Positions 2,758 to 42,888 are shown, counted from the first letter of the stretch. The stretch: 42,888 bases of DNA from Bryobacterales bacterium (GCA_026713545.1 JAPOOG010000014.1:1-42888), one strand, 5' to 3'. Notes: generated by a model from the letters alone, not told the origin. Program-made: numbers and translations.

Positions 2758-3108
2758 TGGTGGAGGCGGCGGGAGTCGAACCCGCGTCCGGAATAGTCCT
2801 CCATGGAGAGCCTACATACTTAGTCCGCTCGAAAGTCTCGACCGGTTCGTTGGAACGGACACGCCTGAACCGGTCCAGCCCGATTGTGTGTCAGCCTTGC
2901 GCTCCGGACAGAAGCCTGGGGCCCATCCCGCCAGATGACGCTCCACGCCCCCATGCGGGCCTGTGGACGCGAGCGGCTGCCTGATCAGGCAGCGTATGCT
3001 AACGAATTATCGTTGGCAGTTGTTGTTTTTCCGATCGTTTTACGGGAGCTCGGAACCCGATATGCCTCTCCACGACGGAAGCAATCCCGTCGAATCCGTT
3101 ACGCCCCC
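2758..3108 (-). ncRNA. ssrA: tmRNA (transfer-messenger RNA)
   Basis: One-piece tmRNA, 351 nt, which rescues stalled ribosomes with SmpB and tags the unfinished protein for proteolysis. On the minus strand the 5' end GGGGGCG (3108-3102) pairs with CGCCTCC just before ACCA (2768-2758) to form the 7-bp acceptor stem, and the T-arm GGTTCGACTCC follows the usual pattern. The mRNA-like part lies at 3017-2985: GCC AAC GAT AAT TCG TTA GCA TAC GCT GCC TGA, giving the tag ANDNSLAYAA after the alanine carried by the tmRNA itself. The conserved 5' segment GTAACGGATTCGACGG is present. The CCA end is encoded. No strong terminator follows the 3' end; AT-rich sequence starts at once. Confidence 0.97.
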
Positions 3109-3206: not shown

Positions 3207-3471
3207 CGCGTGCGAGAGAAGGCTGTCGGGGCGAGGCGCGAGCCGGGCGGAGGAAAAAGGCGCGCGCAACACGGCCTGTAAGGTTTTTCACGAATCACGA
3301 GACACGAGACACGGCCTTTCCCGAATCACGCCGTTTCCCGTTCCCCGGCCGTCAAACATTTCTTCTGGAGCAAACCAGATCCCCTGCCCATGGTTTTCAC
3401 GAGACACGAATCACGAGACACGAAACACGGCCTTTTTCTCGCGTGCTGCGGCCGTCAAGTGGTGAGTAATG
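3207..3471 (+). repeat. Dispersed mosaic repeat, copy A (two heptamer arrays)
   Basis: This copy fills the space between ssrA and the 3' end of ubiX. It holds two arrays of a 7-bp unit: CACGAAT, CACGAGA, CACGAGA, CACGGCC (3289-3316) and CACGAGA, CACGAAT, CACGAGA, CACGAAA, CACGGCC (3398-3432). The left flank (about 3234-3288, including GAGCCGGGCGGAGGAAAAAG) matches copy D (9793-9837) almost base for base, and both copies end in GGTGAGYAATG. No coding function is apparent. Confidence 0.9.
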
Positions 3472-3480
3472 CAGGTTGGT

Positions 3481-4044
3481 TCAGGCTCCGTCCCAGCGAT
3501 GCGCGTCGCCGGGGGGAAGCCCCAGCAGATCGAGAATGCGGTTGACGCCGTGATCGACCAGGTCGTCGATGCTCTCCGGTTTCGTGTAGAACGCGGGCAG
3601 GGGCGGAGCGATCACGGCCCCCATTTCCGTCAACGAAACCATCGTCCGCAAGTGGCCGAGATGAAAGGGCGACTCCCGGACAGCCAGAATCAGAGGCCGC
3701 CGTTCCTTGAGCGTCACGTCGGCGGCGCGCACCAGGAGATTGGACGTGATTCCGGCGGCAATGGCCGACATCGTGTGGACCGAGCAGGGCGCGACCACCA
3801 TGGCGTCGATGGGATACGAGCCGCTCGCGATGGACGCCCCGATGGCGTCGACGAAATGCCAGTGGGTCGCCAGGGCCTTGATGTCCTTGGCGCTGAGCCC
3901 GGTCTCGTGGAAGAGGGTCTTCTCACCCGGCCGCGAGAGCACCGCGTGCGTCTCGACGTCGGGGAGCTTCGCCAGCTTCTCGAGCAGTCGGACGCCGTAG
4001 ATCGTGCCGCTGGCGCCGCTAATCCCGACGATGATCCGGGTCAT
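3481..4044 (-). CDS. ubiX: Flavin prenyltransferase UbiX
   Basis: UbiX, 187 aa, makes prenylated FMN, the cofactor of UbiD-type decarboxylases, from dimethylallyl phosphate and FMNH2. The FMN-binding motif GISGASG is at residues 7-13. APCSVHTMSAIAAGI (85-99), the ADVTLKERRPL segment (108-118), REsP (123-126) and the C-terminal PAFY (150-153) are all family hallmarks, and the length is usual. The start chosen is ATG 4044, which begins exactly with the conserved MTRIIVGISG; the frame is open upstream but that part is repeat R2, which begins two bases before the ATG and leaves no recognisable ribosome binding site. No ubiD lies in the window. The gene is bracketed by different repeats: copy A downstream, R2 upstream. 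Confidence 0.95.
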   Translation of the reverse strand: MTRIIVGISGASGTIYGVRLLEKLAKLPDVETHAVLSRPGEKTLFHETGLSAKDIKALATHWHFVDAIGASIASGSYPIDAMVVAPCSVHTMSAIAAGITSNLLVRAADVTLKERRPLILAVRESPFHLGHLRTMVSLTEMGAVIAPPLPAFYTKPESIDDLVDHGVNRILDLLGLPPGDAHRWDGA

Positions 4045-4364
4045 GACAGTCCGTGGTGAAACCCCGCGTAGCACCGAGAGCGGCCCGCGTAGCACCGTAA
4101 ACGGCGCTGCGCTTGGCTGACAAGGCGCGGCGAGGAAGCATATTCGACCGAGGAGCAACACAGTTCAGCCGGGATGCATCGCCGCTTGAATGCAGCGGAG
4201 CTTTTACCACGGGCTGATAAGTCCCCAATGCCGTCCTTGATTGCCTTCAAGGCCCGGTTCTGCTCCTGAATCAGGCGGCCGGAGCCCTCGGCGGCAGGCT
4301 CCATTCTCTCATGCCGCGATTCGGCCTGCTTTTTCCATTCCTCGGCGAGTCGGCTGTCGACCAT
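4041..4364 (-). CDS. Doubtful small ORF running into repeat R2
   Basis: The first 49 codons (4364-4218) give a charged, helix-prone peptide (EEWKKQAESRHERMEPAAEG) that looks more coding than its surroundings. The remaining 58 codons are simply the translation of repeat R2 and overlap the ubiX start. It may be the stump of a small gene cut off by the arrival of R2, or chance. The frame is also open upstream towards 4460. No family is recognised. Confidence 0.2.
   Translation of the reverse strand: MVDSRLAEEWKKQAESRHERMEPAAEGSGRLIQEQNRALKAIKDGIGDLSARGKSSAAFKRRCIPAELCCSSVEYASSPRLVSQAQRRLRCYAGRSRCYAGFHHGLS
4047..4216 (-). repeat. Dispersed repeat R2, copy 1, abutting ubiX start codon
   Basis: About 170 bases that recur inverted at 36152-36309. 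Shared blocks include CAGTCCGTGGTGAAACCCC, GCGTAGCACCGAGAGCGG, GTTCAGCC, GGATGCATCGCCGCTTGAAT and GCTTTT-CCAC. Copy 1 carries an internal near-duplication of about 21 bases (CCGCGTAGCACCG occurs twice) that copy 2 lacks. It ends two bases from the ubiX ATG. The strand given is that of the ubiX side; which strand, if any, is functional is unknown. Confidence 0.85.
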
Positions 4365-4461
4365 CCGCGAACTTTCGTACGGTTTCGACCGTGGGCAATG
4401 CCGCCGCGTGTCCTGGCCCGGTCGGGAGCTTGCCGGAACAGGGCTCGTGTCTCCTTCGAAG

Positions 4462-5379
4462 TCAGTCCTTGGTGGTTCGGTTCAGGTCGTAGAGGCCGGG
4501 GACGCCTCGGATGTGGAGGTGGTTGAGAGTGCGGCGTTGCGGGTTGCGCCGCTCGAAGCCGGCCGAGGCGCCGCTGAGGTGGAGCGCGCGGGAATCCCGG
4601 GACCAACGGTATGCGAAGGAACGGCCGCCGCCCGGTTCGGATTCATGCAGCGACACGACCGTTTCGATCTCGCCGCTGTCGAACGACCATAGGTGCAGGC
4701 TGTAGAAGCTGGAGGCGGTGGCGCCCGATCGCAGCAAGGCGCCATGAGTGCGGTCGGGTGAAACGGCCAGGCTGTGGCCGGGGCCGACGTAGCTGAGGTT
4801 CCGCGTTTCCAGGTCGTAGAGGTAGAGCGAGCGCTCCGGCCGGAGGGTATCGTCGAACCAACTGTTCGCATAGCGGCGGAGCTTGTCCCGGACGGGCATC
4901 AACCAGGAATTCCGGCGTTCCAGCACGACGAACGTTTCGCCCCGGCGGCGGATGAATCGTGGCTGGTCGAAGACGATCGAGCCGGGCAGGCTGAGTTCTT
5001 CGAGAAAGCCATCGGTTTCCGACCAGAGGTAGAAGTGCCGCTCGGCGACCCGTCTCTCGCCTTCGTGGGATTGAATGACCCATCGGCCGCTCGATTCGTC
5101 GTGGTCGGTTGCCGCGACCCGGCCGCGGACCGCAACGCCCGGCGGCGTGGCGGGTGCGGTTTGCTCGGCAAGCGGGGTGCCGTTGGAAAACTCGCTGCGG
5201 TAGCCGGCCAGGGCCGGATGCGATTGATCGGTGAGGATCTCGGGAATATGTTCTTCCATGCCGGAGCCCCAGTTGCCGGGCCCGAGAACGGCGACGCACG
5301 AAGCGTGAATGGCCAGGGCGGGGAACAGAAGGGCAAGCAGAACGGCGAAGATCCAGCGCTTGGAACCGGCTGAGTGCAT
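4462..5379 (-). CDS. Secreted protein of unknown function, beta-propeller-like, 305 aa
   Basis: The protein begins with a clear signal peptide (residues about 1-27: basic SKRW, then FAVLLALLFPALAIHA, with the mature part starting around a Cys, so a lipoprotein is possible). The rest is soluble, with repeated short beta-strand segments such as RSLYLYDLETRNLSYVGPG and HSLAVSPDRTHGALLRSG, which resemble WD40/TolB-like propeller blades, but no named family can be given. ATG 5379 is preferred over an upstream TTG at 5397 because it places the basic signal-peptide start correctly; the ribosome binding site is weak either way. Repeats lie on both sides, so no operon partner is evident. Confidence 0.65.
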   Translation of the reverse strand: MHSAGSKRWIFAVLLALLFPALAIHASCVAVLGPGNWGSGMEEHIPEILTDQSHPALAGYRSEFSNGTPLAEQTAPATPPGVAVRGRVAATDHDESSGRWVIQSHEGERRVAERHFYLWSETDGFLEELSLPGSIVFDQPRFIRRRGETFVVLERRNSWLMPVRDKLRRYANSWFDDTLRPERSLYLYDLETRNLSYVGPGHSLAVSPDRTHGALLRSGATASSFYSLHLWSFDSGEIETVVSLHESEPGGGRSFAYRWSRDSRALHLSGASAGFERRNPQRRTLNHLHIRGVPGLYDLNRTTKD

Positions 5380-5611
5380 CACTTCATTCTGCAGCAAAAC
5401 ATGCCGGCGGAGGTTGACTGCGCCCGATCCGGTTGCAATTTGTGTGCGGACGATCTCATCGACGACAGGCGGGAGTCGCCTACCTGGAAGGCCGCGCTTC
5501 GGGGATTTGGAGTCCTGCGCAAGTTACTGGCAGTAGGCGGCGGGACGCCATGAATAGAACGGCGGCGCAGTCCGGAGCCTGGTGTCGAGAGCGCTAAGTG
5601 CCGGCGCAATG

Positions 5612-5747
5612 GGAGAAGTGCCCCTCACGAGACACGAGACACGAAACACAGCTTTTCCCTGTCCCTCCGGCGACTCCAAGGAGAGCAACCCCAAGCCCGG
5701 CCAACGGGTTTTCACGAAACACGAGACAAGAGACACGAGACACGTAT
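5612..5747 (+). repeat. Dispersed mosaic repeat, copy B (two heptamer arrays)
   Basis: Two heptamer arrays: CACGAGA, CACGAGA, CACGAAA, CACAGCT (5627-5654) and CACGAAA, CACGAGA, CAAGAGA, CACGAGA, CACGTAT (5713-5747). The spacer between them (CTTTTCCCTGTCCCTCCGGC, ACTCCAAGGAGAGCAAC, CCAACGGG) recurs between the third and fourth arrays of copy C (6226-6285), so B is a partial copy of C. Confidence 0.88.
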
Positions 5748-5763
5748 TTTTGATACCTCTTGG

Positions 5764-5788
5764 TACTGAAGCCCTTCAGTCTTTTTTT
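5764..5788 (+). terminator. Intrinsic terminator without an upstream gene
   Basis: ACTGAA-GCCC-TTCAGT forms a six-base stem with a four-base loop (5765-5780), followed by C and seven T (5782-5788). It has the form of a rho-independent terminator on the plus strand. No plus-strand gene lies upstream within the window's left part except across repeat B, which ends 17 bases earlier; it could end a transcript of the repeat or a readthrough RNA. Confidence 0.55.
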
Positions 5789-5889
5789 ACTGCCCCGGTC
5801 GGCCTAGCATGAGGTCAGGATGTCGGGAATCATCCGGATCGACTTGCCATCGGCGCGGCGCTCGCTGGGGCGGCGGCCGTCACCCAAGC

Positions 5890-6560
5890 CGGCAACACGG
5901 CCTGTAAGGTTTTCCGCGAGACACGAGACACGAAACACGGCTTTTATGCTTTTCACGAATCACGAGACGCGAATCACGGCCTTTGTGGCCGTTCGGGTCG
6001 CCATGGGCGCGCAAGGGTCGCACCACCAGGAACCGCCGTCCGGACCACTGCGCCCGTCGCCCCGTCACTGTTTCCCTGTTCACGATTGTTCACTATTGTT
6101 CACGATTGTTCGGCATTGTTCAGTAAAAAATATTACCCCTGAGCCAGTGTCCCTCTCCGTCCACACCGGCAACGCGGCCTGTAAGGTTCTTCACGAGACA
6201 CGAGGCACGAATCACGCAACATGGTTTTTCCCTGTCCCACCGGCGACTTCAAGGAGAGCAACACAAGCCCGACCAACGGGTTTTTCACGAATCACGAGAC
6301 ACGAGACACGGCTGTTATGGCTGCCCGAACCCTCGCGCCCGCCGGCAAGTCACTGCTTCTCTGCCCGGAATTGCCCGGCATTGCTCGGTAAAAAAATGTC
6401 CTGCGCCAGTGTCCTTGCCCCGTCAGCCGTTCTCGGTCGGTCTCGAGACGAGCGCCGTTCGCCGCTGCTCCCGTTGCCCTCCGGGCTCGTTCCTTTGCGG
6501 CGAACGCCAAACGAACCCATGCCGAGAAAGGAGGACGTTCGAGATTGCGCCGACAGCCCT
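5890..6560 (+). repeat. Dispersed mosaic repeat, copy C (longest; four heptamer and two decamer arrays)
   Basis: Heptamer arrays stand at 5915-5942, 5954-5981, 6192-6226 and 6286-6313. Decamer arrays stand at 6081-6120 (CACGATTGTT, CACTATTGTT, CACGATTGTT, CGGCATTGTT, then CAGTAAAAAA) and 6364-6383 (CCCGGAATTG, CCCGGCATTG, then CTCGGTAAAAAAATG). Each decamer array is followed by an A-tract and then a block with CCAGTGTCC. The last module (6384-6550, including GTTCTCGGTCGG and CCCATGCCGAGAAAG) is repeated closely, inverted, at 42353-42510 and in decayed form at 11713-11857. Confidence 0.92.
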
Positions 6561-6660: not shown

Positions 6661-6807
6661 ATGCCCAAGCGAACGTATCAACCGAACCGAAGACAGCGAG
6701 CCAAGCGGCATGGTTTTCGCGCCAGAATGAAGTCTCCCGGTGGTCGGAAGGTGCTGGCGAATCGCCGGGCCAAGGGCCGGCATGTGCTCTCCGTCAGCTC
6801 CGAATGA
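6661..6807 (+). CDS. rpmH: 50S ribosomal protein L34
   Basis: A 48-residue, strongly basic protein starting [20 protein letters not shown], followed by [18 protein letters not shown], the L34 signature. It binds 23S rRNA in the large subunit. The gene stands first in the L34-RNase P-YidD-YidC cluster. Its 3' end overlaps the likely start of rnpA (ATG 6782) by 26 bases, indicating joint transcription and probable translational coupling. The C-terminal end (HVLSVSSE) is a few residues longer than in many L34 proteins. Confidence 0.96.
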
Positions 6808-9210: not shown

Positions 9211-9723
9211 ATGTCGCGAGAGGCGTGGGCACAGGAAGAGATCGCTAAGAAGTTGGACCAGTTTCTCGGGCCGGTCCTTTCCGCCGCCCGGCTCTCCCTT
9301 GATTACGAACTCCACGAGGGCAGAGACGACGGGAAGTTCATCAATCCGGACATTACCGTGAGTTTTGACGGGGATGACATCGAGTTGCTCCTCGCTCAAA
9401 AAGGTGAATTGCTTCTCGCCTTGGAACAACTTACCCTCGAAGCGCTGCATGTCCCGCACGAAGATCGCTACAGGATCATCTTCGATGCGCACGATTATCG
9501 CCTGTTGCGCATCGAAGAATTGCGGATGAGCGCCGAAAAAGCCGCCGAAATGGTCAAGCGAACCGGCATGGCGTACAGCTTTAACCCCATGACGTCTCGT
9601 GAGCGGCGCATCCTGCATCTCGCCCTGCGTGATGACGCCGAAGTCTACACGACGAGTGAGGGCATCCCGCCGCACCGCCATACCGTGGTCCGGCTCGCGA
9701 AAGAGGGTGGTAAGACGAACTGA
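9211..9723 (+). CDS. Jag/KhpB-type RNA-binding protein (KH + R3H), short form
   Basis: A 170-residue protein encoded 24 bases after yidC, the standard place for jag (khpB/eloR). The middle part (about 45-105) fits the KH-like domain (LLLALEQLTLEALH). The C-terminal part is an R3H domain: MTSRERRILHLALRDD followed by VYTTSEG and PHRHTVV. The usual N-terminal Jag_N domain is missing; only about 40 residues precede the KH part. It should bind RNA in the cytoplasm; in other bacteria it influences cell elongation and division through mRNA binding. The ribosome binding site before the ATG is poor. Confidence 0.85.
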   Translation: MSREAWAQEEIAKKLDQFLGPVLSAARLSLDYELHEGRDDGKFINPDITVSFDGDDIELLLAQKGELLLALEQLTLEALHVPHEDRYRIIFDAHDYRLLRIEELRMSAEKAAEMVKRTGMAYSFNPMTSRERRILHLALRDDAEVYTTSEGIPPHRHTVVRLAKEGGKTN

Positions 9724-9759
9724 CTTGGCCTGGATGTCTCACCTGGTGGCGAGGCGAAG

Positions 9760-9903
9760 TTCGTGAGAGGGCCGGCAGGACAAGGCGCGAGCCGGGCGGA
9801 GGAAAAAGGCGCACGCAACACGGCCTTTAAGGTTTTTTACGAATCACGAAACACGAATCACGGCCTTTTTTCGCGTTCTCCGGCCGTCTGGCGGTGAGCA
9901 ATG
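9760..9903 (+). repeat. Dispersed mosaic repeat, copy D, ending in the mnmE start codon
   Basis: One array: TACGAAT, CACGAAA, CACGAAT, CACGGCC (9838-9865). The flank GAGCCGGGCGGAGGAAAAAG is shared with copy A, and both copies end in GCCGTC, a few variable bases and GGTGAGYAATG. Here that last ATG is the mnmE start. It interrupts a cluster whose other genes overlap or lie within 25 bases. Confidence 0.9.
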
Positions 9904-11295
9904 AAGGCCAGGACTACGTTGTCCGGCTCCGGGGCTTACCCGGCAATACATCCCGACGATACGATCGTCGCGGTTTCCACTCCGCCCGGCAGAGGCGGCA
10001 TCGGTATCGTTCGCCTCTCCGGACCGCAGGCCTTGGAAATCTCCGAACAGCTTGTCCGGCGCACTGATGCGGCGCCCGCGCACGTTCGAAGGCCGCTGCT
10101 TGGTTCATTGCTCGACGATGCCGGCAACGTCGTCGATGAAGTGCTCGTCACCCTGTTCTGCGCGCCGAAATCATATACAGCCGAGGATGTCGTCGAAATC
10201 TCCTGCCACGGCTCGCCCGCGATCCTCGCTTTTGCCGTCGAACGCGCTGTCAGACTCGGTGCTCGCCTGGCCGAACCCGGTGAGTTTACCCGGCGGGCCT
10301 TTTTGAATGAGCGCATCGACCTGGCGCAGGCCGAGGCAATCCACGACCTCATTGAGGCCACCACCGTCTATCAGGCCCGTGTCGCCCTGCAGCAGGCCAA
10401 GGGCGCGCTCTCGAATCGACTTGCTCCCGTCAAGCAGCAGCTCTGTGACTTGATCTCATTGCTCGAAGCAGGAATCGACTTCGCCGAGGATGACATTGAC
10501 GTTGCTTCCGCTGACCAGCTTCTTGAGCGTCTTGAGCCCATTCAATCGGAGGTCCAACGCCTGGTCGAGAGCTATCGCTACGGAAAAGTCGTCCGAGGTG
10601 GACTGACGCTGGCGATTTTGGGACGCCCCAACGTAGGCAAATCCAGCCTGTTCAATCGGCTGCTCGAGCGTGAGCGAGCCATCGTCACGCCACAGGCCGG
10701 AACTACCCGCGACTCGGTCAGCGAAGTCGGTTCGATTCAGGGTCTCCCTATCCAGTTCATCGACACGGCCGGTATCCGCGCCACCACCGACGTCGCCGAG
10801 GTGCAAGGCGTGGAACGCAGCTATCAGGCTTTGGCGGACGCCGACCTCGTGCTCGTCGTCATCGATCTGTCGCAGCCTCTGGATGACACCGATCAACAAT
10901 TGCTGGCGGAGGCGCGCGAGCGCGGCAAGAGCCTCGTTGTCGGCAACAAGGCCGACCTCCCTTCTCAAAACAATTCGGCGGTCGATCTCCGGGTCAGCGC
11001 TGTCACGGGAGAGGGGGTTCAGGCTCTCCGTAAGAGCATTCACGACAGTGTCTTACCCGCTTCCGGCGTCGAGGAAGAGGCCGGCTGGATCACCAACCTG
11101 CGCCACGAAACGCTGCTCAGGGAGTCGCTCGGATCGCTGCAACAGGCCCGCGAGGCCGTCGAAAACGGCATCCCCCATGAGATGCTGCTTCTCGATTTAT
11201 ACGCGGCGCTCCAGGGTTTCGATCAAATCACCGGCGCTACGACCGTGGACGACATCCTCGCCAACATCTTCTCTCGCTTCTGTATCGGCAAGTAA
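9901..11295 (+). CDS. mnmE: tRNA modification GTPase MnmE
   Basis: MnmE, 464 aa, with MnmG modifies the wobble uridine (cmnm5U34) of tRNAs. The N-terminal formyl-THF-binding domain starts at DDTIVAVSTPPGRGGIGIVR (19-38). The inserted G domain has GRPNVGKSS (241-249), GTTRD (267-271), DTAG (288-291) and NKAD (349-352), and the C-terminal motif is CIGK. All key residues are present. The first ATG coincides with the end of repeat copy D; about 16 residues precede the conserved start, more than in typical MnmE, so the repeat may have replaced the native leader. No mnmG is seen nearby. purS follows after 15 bases. Confidence 0.96.
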   Translation: MKARTTLSGSGAYPAIHPDDTIVAVSTPPGRGGIGIVRLSGPQALEISEQLVRRTDAAPAHVRRPLLGSLLDDAGNVVDEVLVTLFCAPKSYTAEDVVEISCHGSPAILAFAVERAVRLGARLAEPGEFTRRAFLNERIDLAQAEAIHDLIEATTVYQARVALQQAKGALSNRLAPVKQQLCDLISLLEAGIDFAEDDIDVASADQLLERLEPIQSEVQRLVESYRYGKVVRGGLTLAILGRPNVGKSSLFNRLLERERAIVTPQAGTTRDSVSEVGSIQGLPIQFIDTAGIRATTDVAEVQGVERSYQALADADLVLVVIDLSQPLDDTDQQLLAEARERGKSLVVGNKADLPSQNNSAVDLRVSAVTGEGVQALRKSIHDSVLPASGVEEEAGWITNLRHETLLRESLGSLQQAREAVENGIPHEMLLLDLYAALQGFDQITGATTVDDILANIFSRFCIGK

Positions 11296-11310: not shown

Positions 11311-11550
11311 ATGCGAGCGGTCGTTCACGTCACCCTCAAGAAAACGGTTCTCGACCCCCAGGGTCGCACTATCTGCTCCACTCTCAACGGCCTCGGCCAC
11401 GGCAACATCGTGGACGTGCGTCAGGGTAAGTACTTCGAGATCGAACTCGACGGCGACATGGACGAAGTACGCGAACAGATCGACAAGATCGCCCATGACG
11501 TTCTCGCAAATCCCGTGATCGAGGAATACCGCGTCGATGTGGAAGATTAG
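11311..11550 (+). CDS. purS: Phosphoribosylformylglycinamidine synthase subunit PurS
   Basis: A 79-residue protein matching PurS: it starts MRAVVHVTLKKTVLDPQG, continues GHGNIVDVRQGKYFEIEL and ends with NPVIEEYRVDVED. PurS forms the FGAM synthase complex with PurQ and small-type PurL in purine biosynthesis. It is normally followed by purQ/purL; here it follows mnmE by 15 bases and is followed by about 470 non-coding bases, so its partners must be elsewhere. Confidence 0.93.
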   Translation: MRAVVHVTLKKTVLDPQGRTICSTLNGLGHGNIVDVRQGKYFEIELDGDMDEVREQIDKIAHDVLANPVIEEYRVDVED

Positions 11551-11712
11551 CGAGGCTCCGCCTCAGACCGACAAGAAGGATATCTGATCACCTCGTGAAC
11601 TTGACTCAAATGTAAACCTTAGCCGGAGACAAAAACTAGCGAGGCTCATATCCGGTTTTGTGGGGGATTGTTGCGCACTAGTGCCGTCTCGGGGGCAGAT
11701 TTGTTGCACATG

Positions 11713-11857
11713 AGCTGGTGTCCGCGGACCTTCCGTAGTTCTCGGTCGGCACACGACAAGCGCCGTCGGCCGCAACTCCCGTCGCCCTGCGGACTTCTTG
11801 CGATGCCGTGAAGGCCCAATGAACCATGCTGAGCAAGGGGAACGTTCTTTACTGCAC
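11713..11857 (+). repeat. Dispersed mosaic repeat, decayed copy F
   Basis: It aligns with the last module of copy C (6405-6550) and with copy E: GGTGTCC, AGTTCTCGGTCGG, AAGCGCCGT, GTCGCCCT, AATGAACCATGC and GGGGAACGTTC recur in the same order, with many substitutions. There are no heptamer or decamer arrays in this copy. Confidence 0.75.
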
Positions 11858-11948
11858 AAACAGAGGAGCTTTCTGGGTCGCGTTGGCACGCCCGGCTCCA
11901 ATCTTGACAGCGAAGTATAGTACCCCCTAATCTGAAAGTTCGAAACCG

Positions 11949-36130: not shown

Positions 36131-36151
36131 TCAACCGTGCTCAGGTGTTAG

Positions 36152-36309
36152 CAGCCTGTGGCAAAAGCCCCACTACATTCAAGCGGCGATGCATCCGGGC
36201 TGAACTGCGTTGCTGCTCGGTCGAATCTGTCCAATATGCTCCCTCGTCGAGCCTTGTCAGCCGGTCGCCTCGCCGCTCTCGGTGCTACGCGGGGTTTCAC
36301 CACGGACTG
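36152..36309 (+). repeat. Dispersed repeat R2, copy 2, abutting the receptor stop codon
   Basis: Inverted relative to copy 1 (4047-4216). The shared blocks are continuous over about 155 bases with a handful of substitutions, one extra 9-base insertion and no internal duplication. Its right edge (36309) touches the TAG of the TonB-dependent receptor gene (36312-36310). Confidence 0.85.
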
Positions 36310-39300
36310 CTAGAAATCGTACCGCAGGCCGAACTGAATCGTACGGTTCGGGACGGACGTTCTTCGTATCGTGCCTGTCCGACCCGGGATATACGGCAAC
36401 GATGCATTCGGATTGCCGAAGTTCGGGTGGTTCCAGGCATTGAAGAACTCCGTTCGCCACTGCACCGAGTGGCCCTCCCAAGGAAGGGGGAAGCGCTTCA
36501 TGATGCCCAGGTCCCAGAGGTTCAGGCCCGGTCCGACGATGCTGCCACGACCGGCATTGCCAATGGATCGCCACACATCCTGTCCGGAATCCAAGACCTG
36601 CTGCAGAGTTGGAGGTCTGACGAAAGCCGTGTGGTCGAACCAGTTGTCCAAGGTTCTGGCGGCGTTCGCCATGGGGTCCCCGATCTGATCCGGCCGGTTG
36701 CCGCCCGCATTGCTGTTGTTGTAGGTCAGAGCCGGCGTGACGCGACTGCCTGTCTGGAACGTGGCAATGGCCGAAACCTGCCAGCCTCCGATCACCATGT
36801 CGAGTCCGGGGGATGCATCACCCCCGAAGCGTTTTCCGCGGCCGAACGGCAGTTCGGCTACACTACTGATCACCAGCCTGTGGCGGATATCGGCGGGTCC
36901 CGGGCCCTTGTCCAGCCCGAAGTTGGTGGGGTTGCGGAACCCTTGACATTCGTTCTGCGACCCTACGACACAGCCGATGGCATTCGACTTGCCCCAGGTA
37001 TACGCACCGACAAAATTGAAACCGCCGGTGAAGCGCCGCTCCATTCTCACCTGCAGGGAGTCATACCAGGACTGTCCCACATTGCTCACATAACTGATGT
37101 TCTGCAGTTGCGGGAACCGGCGCCGAGCCTGCGTCGGTCCGAGACCGGCCCCGACGAAGTTGGGATTCCAGCCGTGGACCGTGGAGATGCCGCGATTCGC
37201 GACGTAAGCGACATCGAGCACCGTATCGGTAAACAACTGCCGCTGCAGACCGAGCGACCATTGGTGGACATAGCCCCCCCTGAGGTCGCGGGCCACGGCA
37301 GTTCCGGTGGTGGCGTCCGCCGCCGTCGGCGTAGACGGAATCGGCCCGGGGAAGGGGTTCTGGAACGTCAAGGTCGGGACATCGGGATTGCTGCTCCGCG
37401 GGTCCTGGAACTGCCAGGGAGGAGACTGGTTCATGTTGAAGAACGAGTTGGCGATGCGGTAGTCGTAGAAGATGCCGTATCCTCCTCGGACGACCGTCTT
37501 GTTGTCGCCGAACACGCGCCAGGCGAAACCGATACGGGGCATGAAGTTGTTGTTGTCGGGATCATACCCGGCCCGCGGGACGCCGGCAGTGGCAACCACC
37601 GGGCAGAACTGCTCGATGTCGAAACAGAAGGTGTTGAAGCGGTCGAACCGCTCGTAGACGCCCGAGTAACGCTCCCAGCGCACTCCCAGGTTCAAAGTGA
37701 AATTAGGGCGGACTCGCCAGTCGTCGTGCAGGTACGCGCTCCACCAATTCGACTTCGTGATGTTGTCCGGGAAGCCGAAAGCGCGGTTGGTGGCAGTTAT
37801 ATCGCCCAGCAAAAACTCGGCAAAGGCGTTGTCGGGTCCGCCGGGTCCACTCACCAGTTCCGTCGAGTAGCGCGGACGAAACTGATACGTGCCACGATCG
37901 TTCGCGTGGAAATGGAGCGGCGAGGTCTTGTAGGTGAACTCGACGCCCGCCTTGAGCGAATGGTTGGTCAGCTCTTTGCTGATCTTGTTAAAGATCTGGT
38001 AGCTATCGTCCGACTGGAACAGCGGAGCAAAGGCATGCTCGTGGGGCATCGCAAAGCCCGACACGCTCAGGGCAGGGAAACCGCCGGTGCGCTGTCCCTC
38101 CGGCAGGCCGGATTGCTCGGCCAAGCCCAGTTGCGCTCCGATATCTTCTCCCTGATGTCCGTGATAGCGGTTCTGGAAGAAGCGGTTATAACCCAGAAGC
38201 AGCTCGTAGACCATGGTGGGATTAATGATCTCGGTGTGCGTGATGTTGGCGTTCTGGGCCGGGAAGTTCTGAACCTCATGGAAACCCGGGAACATCACGC
38301 TACCCAAGAAACCCGGGACAATCCCATTCCTCTCGTTCCAGGTGTACCTTCCGGAGGTGATGGAATTGGCGTTCCAGTGATGATCTCCCTTGAAGGTGTA
38401 CTGGTTGACGTCGGTGCTGGCGCTCGGAGTGGCGGTGTAGTTGTTGGTCTGGCCCGGGCCGTTGGGGAGCGGCGTAAAACCCAGATAGTTGATGGACACC
38501 GGATCGATGCGGCTGGCCGGGATCATGTTGTTCGGGAACGGCATGCGCGAGTTCGTAGCCGGATTCAGAGTGGTGGGGTCGTGAATGATCCTTGTGCGTT
38601 GGCTGAAATCTCCGTCCCGCAGAAAGTTGTCGGGCACGGTGAGAACCCCACGGGCCACCTCACGGATGCGTTTGCCTTCGAAATTGAAGAAGAAGAAAGT
38701 CTTGTTTTCGTCGATGGGTCCACCCAGCGACACGCCGAACTGGTTGCGGATGTACGGGGGGCGCGGGGACAGCCCGGCCGCGACGCGCTGCTCGGTCGAC
38801 TGGTCGAAGGTGTTCAGCGCCGCCAGCTTGGCGACACGGTTGAACTCGTACAAGGAACCATGGAAGTCGTTGGTACCGCTTTTGCTGATGGTGTTGATCT
38901 GGCCGATCCCGGCGCGCCCTTGCGAGGCATCGAACTGAGCGGTCTGGATCTTGAACTCCTGGATCATGTCCATGCTCGGAACGATGTTCGGACGCCCGAA
39001 GGCCGCCTCGAAGTTGTCGACGCCATCGATTTGCATCAGGCTGCCGCTTTGACTGCCGCCGCCGTTGATGAAGACGCCGCAGGTCTCCCCGCAGGCTACG
39101 CCTCTCCGCTGCGCCACGCCGGGCGTCAATCGGGCAAGGTCAAGGAACTCGCGGCCGTTCATCGGCAATTCGATAATCTTCTTGTTGTCGATCACCTGAC
39201 CGACCGTGGCGTTTTCCGAGGCCACCACCGGAGTGGTCGCTTCCACTTCGATCACCGTGCCGACCTGACCAATCTGCAGGGTGAAGTCGGTGCGAGCCAC

Positions 39301-42194: not shown

Positions 42195-42888
42195 GGAGCA
42201 GATCCCTCCGACCTTGGTGACCAAAGCCGGGTCTGTACAACAATCCCGTAGCCTGAACTAAACCACCGTGCACGGCGAGTATGTCAAACCGGCCGGCGGG
42301 TGTCAAGGTAGTTTCCTGGTCTGTCAAGGCTCGATAGAAATGCGTCATCGCAATATCGAACGTTCCCCTTTCTCGGCATGGGTTCATTCGGTGTTGGCCG
42401 CAGCGCAAGGAGCCTGGAGGGCGATGGGAACTGCGGCGAACGGCGCTCGTCTCGAGGCCGACCGAGAACGGCTGATGGGGCAAGGACACTGGCGCAGGAC
42501 ATTTTTTTACCGAGCAATTCCGGGCAATGCCGGGCAATTCTGGGCAATTCTGGGCAGAGAAGCAGTGACTTGTCGGCGGGCGCGACGGTTCGGGCGGCGA
42601 AAAAAGCCGTGTTTCGTGTCTCGTGATTCGTGAAAAGCATAAAAGCCGTGTTGCGTGACTCGTGTCTCGTGAAGAACCTTACAGGCCGCATTCCCGGTGT
42701 GGACGGAGAGGGGACACTGGCTCCAGGGTACTATTTTTAGCTGAACAAGGCGGTGGACCCCTGAAGTGAGACAAGCCGGTAAGCAGGTTTTCCCCATTTG
42801 CTGAAAAATGGTGGGCTGGGGAACGGCCCTCATAGTAAACTCTTCGTCGGCTGGCGAAGCGGAGGCGGGCTCTGCTGGAGAGCAACCC
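42195..42888. other. Intergenic region to the window edge
   Basis: Mostly repeat copy E (42353-42752). The remaining bases (42195-42352 and 42753-42888) contain no recognisable gene or site; a promoter for the Gfo operon should lie in 42195-42350 but no clear boxes are seen. Confidence 0.5.
42353..42752 (-). repeat. Dispersed mosaic repeat, copy E, inverted
   Basis: On the plus strand: the module matching 6384-6550 in reverse (42353-42505), an A-tract as T-run, then decamers CGAGCAATTC, CGGGCAATGC, CGGGCAATTC, TGGGCAATTC (42511-42550), heptamers AGCCGTG, TTTCGTG, TCTCGTG, ATTCGTG (42605-42632) and AGCCGTG, TTGCGTG, ACTCGTG, TCTCGTG (42644-42671), then a block matching 6121-6190 in reverse. 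Module order equals that of copy C, so C and E are two inverted, near-complete copies about 36 kb apart. Confidence 0.92.

What the first reader, a model, noticed from the sequence alone, without database searches (positions are those of the whole stretch)
3289..6313. Interspersed arrays of a 7-bp unit, CACGARA/CACGAAT, closed by CACGGC
At least eleven short arrays (3289, 3398, 5627, 5713, 5915, 5954, 6192, 6286, 9838, and inverted 42605 and 42644) each hold three to four 7-bp units and most end in CACGGCC/T. All are intergenic. Unit order varies between arrays, so the arrays seem to turn over while unit length is conserved at exactly seven. An RNA of this sequence would be almost unstructured on one strand. 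This matches no element class I can name (not CRISPR, REP or ERIC). Possible roles: protein-binding array, RNA linker, or selfish repeat.
Basis: seen in the sequence. Interest (0 to 1): 0.75.

Follow-up and report, generated by a model that had tools for sequence, protein, structure and literature searches.

The report
Heptamer arrays inside miniature transposons
The short CACGARW arrays are real, number in the hundreds in this type of acidobacterium, and turn out to be an interchangeable inner piece of small hairpin-shaped jumping elements that share their ends with a known transposon family, so they are mostly a genome parasite's cargo and not a new stand-alone repeat class.

Summary
CACGARW arrays lie at the stated places, and the window's genome carries 813 exact CACGARWCACGARWCACG matches (reversed-pattern control 0). 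A sister species also has 813; a third congener has 14. Unit length is almost strictly seven and no sampled array falls inside a called gene. Most arrays end in CACGGC.

The arrays are not free-standing. Most sit in the loop of ~150-350 bp hairpin elements with inverted ends CCTGCATTTCTCACCAC...GTGGTGAGAAATGCAGG. Comparing ~94%-identical orthologous DNA of the two species gives about a dozen precise empty sites, so the elements insert. The sister species carries two intact 1.7 kb IS1380-family insertion sequences with the same ends, the probable source of transposase. The array-free form is older (found across the order, with compensatory base pairs); the array form is derived, seen only in the two sister species. 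At sites occupied in both species the ends are shared but the interior is often swapped. Arrays look like a 4-unit master eroded by unit loss.

Verdict: a new MITE variant carrying a heptamer cassette, related in kind to known heptameric repeats of Xanthomonas and Nostoc. Host function is not shown.

The parts
3210..3479 (+). Heptamer-bearing miniature element (two-array form), left tip lost, between tmRNA and a ubiX-like gene; right inverted end 3459-3475
   Evidence: Repeat coverage 3197-3509; right end GTGGTGAGTAATGCAGG; 83% identical to element consensus; absent between tmRNA and the next gene in G002
3289..3315 (+). Array CACGAAT CACGAGA CACGAGA + CACGGC
3398..3431 (+). Array CACGAGA CACGAAT CACGAGA CACGAAA + CACGGC
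5623..6556 (+). Mosaic cluster of repeat modules holding six arrays (5626, 5713, 5915, 5954, 6192, 6286); element ends not resolved here
   Evidence: Repeat coverage at least 6 and up to 134 fold; module alignments
5763..5788 (+). Terminator-like repeated module: hairpin ACTGAAG-CCC-TTCAGT followed by a run of T
   Evidence: Sequence; recurs after other arrays
6077..6126 (+). Decamer array TGTTCACGAT in the same mosaic
   Evidence: the repeat finder D5; period-10 runs are the second most common intergenic period
9725..9911 (+). Complete single-array miniature element; inverted ends 9729-9745 and 9891-9907; just after the stop codon (9721-9723) of the upstream ORF
   Evidence: 88% identical to element consensus; orthologous copy in G001; ends
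9838..9864 (+). Array TACGAAT CACGAAA CACGAAT + CACGGC
11548..11888 (+). Worn repeat; in G001 the orthologous place carries an array, here it is missing
   Evidence: Alignment with L067; repeat coverage
42322..42707 (-). Mosaic repeat in inverted orientation with two arrays (42652-42671 and 42606-42632) and a decamer array
   Evidence: Repeat coverage; module alignments; array positions; orthologous place in G001 is also repetitive but with different modules

Best explanation
The arrays are an internal cassette of a family of non-autonomous miniature inverted-repeat elements (MITEs). Each element is a long imperfect hairpin with ends CCTGCATTTCTCACCAC; the cassette (GG-TTTT, then usually 2-5 CACGARW units, then CACGGCC/T-TTTT) occupies the loop side. 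Shown: the elements insert precisely at Y-T sites and often right after stop codons, they are high-copy and intergenic, and intact IS1380-family insertion sequences with the same ends exist in the sister species. Inferred: that this transposase moves them in trans. Arrays multiply because the elements multiply, and diversify by loss or gain of whole 7-bp units and by exchange of the interior between dispersed copies that share arms (interior replacement is shown at shared sites; the recombination mechanism is inferred). No host function is needed to explain copy number, placement or the closing CACGGC, though none is excluded.
For: Conserved flanks and inverted ends around arrays; size classes, array-free mostly 174-198 bp, one array 149-179 bp, two arrays 220-345 bp. 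An inverted end lies within 450 bp of 48 of 75 arrays (G000) and 107 of 143 (G001). About a dozen orthologous sites filled in one species and empty in the other, e.g. GCCGCA|CTAG|AGCC empty against GCCGCA CTGA-CCTGC...GCAGG CTAG AGCC filled. IS1380 transposase NF033539, 3.8e-115, in two intact 1723-bp copies with ends CC[TC]GCATTTCTCACCA and direct repeats CTAA and CTAG. Element end exactly at a stop codon in 19 of 61 and 31 of 105 stop-facing ends (distance-0 values). Interior swapped at shared sites C3_166370/L228, L141/L208 and C3_40774/L083. Array-free form in G002 and other genera of the order with 19 compensatory pairs, 0/500 shuffles. Sub-orders of one master array.
Against: Not every array has a recognised inverted end nearby: in G000 19 lie in a second mosaic repeat whose own ends were not resolved and 4 have neither; in G001 25 have none. 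Target duplication is irregular: the first two bases agree in most empty-site comparisons, but the next two at the left end belong to the element and not the target. G000, the window's own genome, shows only broken or partial transposase copies, so activity there is probably over. Off-pattern substitutions in the units (17/777, 12/1316) are fewer than in the element arms (617/9549), which could hint at constraint on the units, although the array count excludes allowed changes and is anchored by a pattern.
Confidence: 0.82

Rival explanations
1. Free-standing heptameric simple-sequence repeats made by replication slippage, as described for GGGNATC in Xanthomonas and Nostoc; the flanking element is incidental.
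For: Unit length seven, intergenic, few units; heptamer abundance in bacteria is known (PMC4692102). Lysobacter, Luteimonas and a Caldilineaceae MAG have near-homogeneous CACGAAT arrays.
Against: In G000 and G001 neighbouring units are identical less often than shuffles predict (24 vs 41.2 +- 5.3; 32 vs 88.4 +- 7.6), the opposite of slippage-made arrays; flanks are shared far beyond the array; empty sites show insertion of the whole element.
Confidence: 0.1
2. The array is a functional binding array (protein or RNA target), kept by selection and carried by the element as a regulatory module.
For: Variation is almost confined to R and W at positions 6-7, with few off-pattern changes; the same slot holds other heptamer flavours (CACTAAC/CACTATC, CACTAGY..CACTGC, AAACGAA) with the same period.
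Against: No clear enrichment at promoters: elements favour convergent regions and stop codons; arrays are absent from the older array-free elements and from almost all relatives; no bound factor identified.
Confidence: 0.12
3. REP/BIME-type palindromes moved by a Y1 (RAYT) transposase, or a CRISPR-like locus.
For: Palindromic, intergenic, high copy.
Against: No Y1_Tnp (PF01797) in either genome while the same search rings in five control genomes; no spacer-repeat alternation; Rfam finds only tmRNA in the window.
Confidence: 0.02

Closest known systems
[quoted passage not shown] Correia elements and TIMEs (PMC4133298)
   Same: Short, inverted ends matching those of an insertion sequence, hundreds of copies, precise empty sites, intergenic
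   Different: Parent is an IS1380-family element; the interior is an exchangeable slot that carries heptamer arrays
GGGNATC heptameric repeats of Xanthomonas and Nostoc (Rehm et al. 2015, PMC4692102)
   Same: Heptamers, mainly intergenic, few units, many copies
   Different: No run of three G, so no G-quadruplex; units are mixed rather than homogeneous; here embedded in a mobile hairpin element
TAACTGA direct repeats of Beggiatoaceae (MacGregor 2015, PMC4679880)
   Same: Intergenic heptamer arrays with patchy distribution across phyla
   Different: Those lie mostly just upstream of start codons; these are inside MITEs that favour stop codons
IS1380-family insertion sequences, e.g. IS1247 (1672 bp, IR 16/13, DR 5; PMC3281130)
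   Same: The sister-species IS is 1723 bp with 16-bp ends matching at 13 positions and an IS1380 transposase
   Different: 4-bp direct repeats in the two copies seen; the arrays themselves are not part of this IS

Membership tests
MITE | Terminal inverted repeats | tested here: met
   61 and 126 paired-end elements found in ~1 Mb of each genome; arms pair along the length
MITE | Small size and high copy number | tested here: met
   Mostly 149-345 bp; 196 exact 16-bp ends in G000 and 542 in G001
MITE | Ends shared with an autonomous element | tested here: met
   IS1380 copies in G001 with the same 16-bp end
MITE | Precise insertion (empty sites) | tested here: met
   About a dozen orthologous empty sites
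MITE | Target-site duplication | tested here: inconclusive
   Two bases (CT or TT) repeated in most cases; four bases in a few
MITE | No transposase gene of its own | not tested
   Implied by the small size only; frames inside elements were not examined one by one
MITE | Transposition in trans by the cognate transposase | not testable with these tools
   Needs an assay
IS1380 family (the autonomous partner) | IS1380 transposase | tested here: met
   NF033539 384.9 bits against cut-off 180; PF13701 494 bits
IS1380 family (the autonomous partner) | Length ~1.7 kb, ~16-bp ends, short direct repeats | tested here: met
   1723 bp; ends 13 of 16 alike; CTAA/CTAA and CTAG/CTAG; compare IS1247
Heptameric G4 repeats (GGGNATC) | Seven-base unit, mainly intergenic | tested here: met
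Heptameric G4 repeats (GGGNATC) | G-tract able to form a quadruplex | tested here: not met
   Unit CACGARW has no GGG on either strand (sequence itself)
REP/RAYT system | Y1 transposase gene | tested here: not met
   0 matches in both genomes
CRISPR | Repeats alternating with unique spacers | tested here: not met
   Head-to-tail units without spacers

The most novel reading that the evidence does not exclude
The element has a dedicated loop slot in which period-7 arrays of one common grammar (roughly MACKRRN, closed by CACKGC) are replaced as whole blocks, so that a whole array, closer included, changes flavour at once; this would point to a templated or recombination-driven process that writes short period-7 arrays into a mobile hairpin, and possibly to a factor that reads a 7-nt period.
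Probability: 0.12. Interest if true: 0.75.

Novelty: new variant of a known kind. Interest (0 to 1): 0.45.

Why it matters
Heptameric intergenic arrays have been reported from several phyla without an explained origin. Here they are caught inside mobile hairpins with a named transposase family, with empty sites and interior swaps between two close species. That makes one route of spread testable and suggests checking whether heptamer arrays elsewhere (Xanthomonas, Lysobacter, Nostoc, Beggiatoaceae) also ride in miniature elements.

Tried and rejected
RAYT/Y1 transposase: none. IS110 as the mover: the only G000 hit (C13) is an IS110 that sits inside an array-free element, whose two halves flank it, so it is a passenger. 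Rfam: only tmRNA. Plasmid collection: no match to the element. Viral contigs: one array match and no element end. First idea that the closing CACGGC is universal: not so in G002 (0 of 11) and only in part of the other taxa sampled; the taxon list is biased because the pattern contained it. First idea of a clean 4-bp duplication: the oriented comparison supports two bases, with the next two at the left belonging to the element.

Full report
What was checked. The window's genome (G000, 5.6 Mb, 170 contigs) holds 813 exact three-CACG matches, 0 for the reversed control. A sister species (G001) also has 813, a third congener (G002) 14, and one of 58 further relatives has a single hit. The longer pattern with CACGGC occurs 289 times in G000 and in none of 296 other genomes sampled from the phylum; that sample did not include G001. 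A scan of species genomes found the pattern in many contigs of a Bryobacterales MAG (RHO3_bin_12), whose match positions and contig lengths correspond to those of G001, and singly in others; so the window comes from an acidobacterium of the order Bryobacterales (lineage). That the host is a sponge is my guess from the MAG name and is not shown.

Array anatomy. In ~1.04 Mb of G000 and ~1.06 Mb of G001, arrays have mostly 2-4 units. Unit spacing is seven in 266 and 523 cases, eight in one each. The typical slot is ...GG-TTTT(T)-[CACGARW]n-CACGGC(C/T)-TTTT.... Arrays begin most often with CACGAAT and end mostly with CACGAAT or CACGAAA before the closer. Identical neighbours are depleted relative to shuffles. 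More than half of the arrays are sub-orders of CACGAAT-CACGAGA-CACGAAA-CACGAAT, twice the shuffled number. Inference: a 4-unit master lost units in its descendants. Period 7 dominates intergenic tandem runs (68 and 101), period 10 is second (32 and 12), other periods are few (a few runs of N may be in the count). Other heptamer flavours fill the same slot.

The element. Lining up the flanks of arrays showed shared sequence well beyond the array, ending in inverted repeats CCTGCATTTCTCACCAC ... GTGGTGAGAAATGCAGG. Paired ends define elements with size classes: array-free mostly 174-178, 186-187 and 197-198 bp, one array about 149-180 bp, two arrays about 220-345 bp. Intact copies fold along their whole length (array-free -107 against -70 kcal/mol for mono-shuffles; one-array -86 against -67). 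The two window copies are worn and do not fold clearly better than shuffles. A second kind of mosaic (window 5623-6556 and 42322-42707) combines arrays with decamer arrays and a terminator-like hairpin; its ends were not resolved.

Mobility. Orthologous DNA of G000 and G001 is about 94% identical, which gives clean comparisons. Roughly a dozen places are filled in one and empty in the other. Oriented by the arms, the target keeps a Y-T at both sides in most cases, the bases right of the element mostly equal the empty site, and the two purines left of CCTGC belong to the element. Because Y-T followed by two purines usually reads TAA, TAG or TGA, an insertion at a gene end restores a stop codon; consistent with this, 19 of 61 (G000) and 31 of 105 (G001) stop-facing ends start exactly after the stop. 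Elements are about twice as frequent per convergent intergenic region as per divergent one. The gene calls are from a home-made codon-score caller.

The likely mover. G001 carries two intact 1723-bp insertion sequences with the same 16-bp ends, 4-bp direct repeats CTAA and CTAG, and a 492-codon frame for an IS1380-family transposase. G000 shows only broken or partial relatives of it. Size and ends fit the family (IS1247: 1672 bp, IR 16/13, DR 5). That this enzyme moves the miniature elements is inferred from the shared ends.

Age and turnover. The array-free element is found in G002 at 82-87% and in genera of another family of the order at 71-75%; across seven copies from these lineages, 19 of 65 pairs show changes on both sides with pairing kept, 0 of 500 shuffles reaching that. 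Related sequences can exceed such shuffles without structure, and the structure was derived from the same alignment, but sliding the partner by 1-3 columns drops the score at least threefold. So the hairpin is old and the array form is derived. At sites occupied in both species the interior often differs: array-bearing in one and array-free in the other at C3_166370/L228 and L141_4342/L208, and array-bearing against another interior at C3_40774/L083, while arms and flanks, including some private variants, are shared. Replacement of the interior is thus shown; gene conversion between dispersed copies is the inferred cause. In the window, the element at 9725-9911 is shared with G001 with the same number of units and a few base changes, the one at 3210-3479 is absent from G002 between tmRNA and the next gene, and at 11.6 kb G001 has an array where the window has none.

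Comparison with the known. Heptameric intergenic repeats are known (GGGNATC, PMC4692102; TAACTGA, PMC4679880), and so are MITEs with parent transposons (PMC4133298). I found no paper that joins the two or describes IS1380-derived elements of this kind in the open library searched; subscription literature was not searched. Near-homogeneous CACGAAT arrays occur in Lysobacter, Luteimonas and a Caldilineaceae MAG at about 20-50 matches per genome, and in several Lysobacteraceae loci as inverted pairs; whether those ride in elements too was not tested. Single or few copies of this very element or its modules in MAGs labelled Rhodothermales, Latescibacterota and Chloroflexi lie on short contigs, so transfer and misbinning cannot be told apart.

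Limits. About a fifth of each genome was read directly. The element assignment of arrays is incomplete. No expression data exist here. The lower rate of off-pattern change in units than in arms leaves room for selection on the array.

Noticed in passing
window 2758-3108 (-): tmRNA gene (Rfam RF00023, 179 bits), directly beside the first array element.
   Followed up: partly
window 6662-6800 (+): Reading frame starting [23 protein letters not shown], which looks like ribosomal protein L34 (rpmH), just after the mosaic repeat cluster.
   Followed up: no
L272 641-2262 (G000:C13): An IS110-family element sits inside an array-free miniature element, whose two halves flank it.
   Followed up: partly
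window 4047-4219 and 36149-36314: Another dispersed repeat (13- to 15-fold coverage from the sample) that looks unrelated to the heptamer elements; near the second copy G001 has ~1.7 kb of other sequence instead.
   Followed up: no
window 6077-6126 and 42322-42707: Decamer arrays (TGTTCACGAT, TGCCCAGAAT) are the second intergenic tandem class, seen here in the mosaic repeat.
   Followed up: partly
L345, L346, L347, L348: The 176-bp array-free hairpin element is spread over several genera of the order with compensatory changes; its conserved interior may deserve its own study.
   Followed up: partly
L187-L196 (G002): The third congener has a few CACGARW arrays with other flanks and no CACGGC closer, apparently of separate origin.
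   Followed up: no
L104, L041, L052, L058, L062, L078: Near-homogeneous CACGAAT arrays in Caldilineaceae and Lysobacteraceae; several of the latter lie in inverted pairs around a short spacer.
   Followed up: partly
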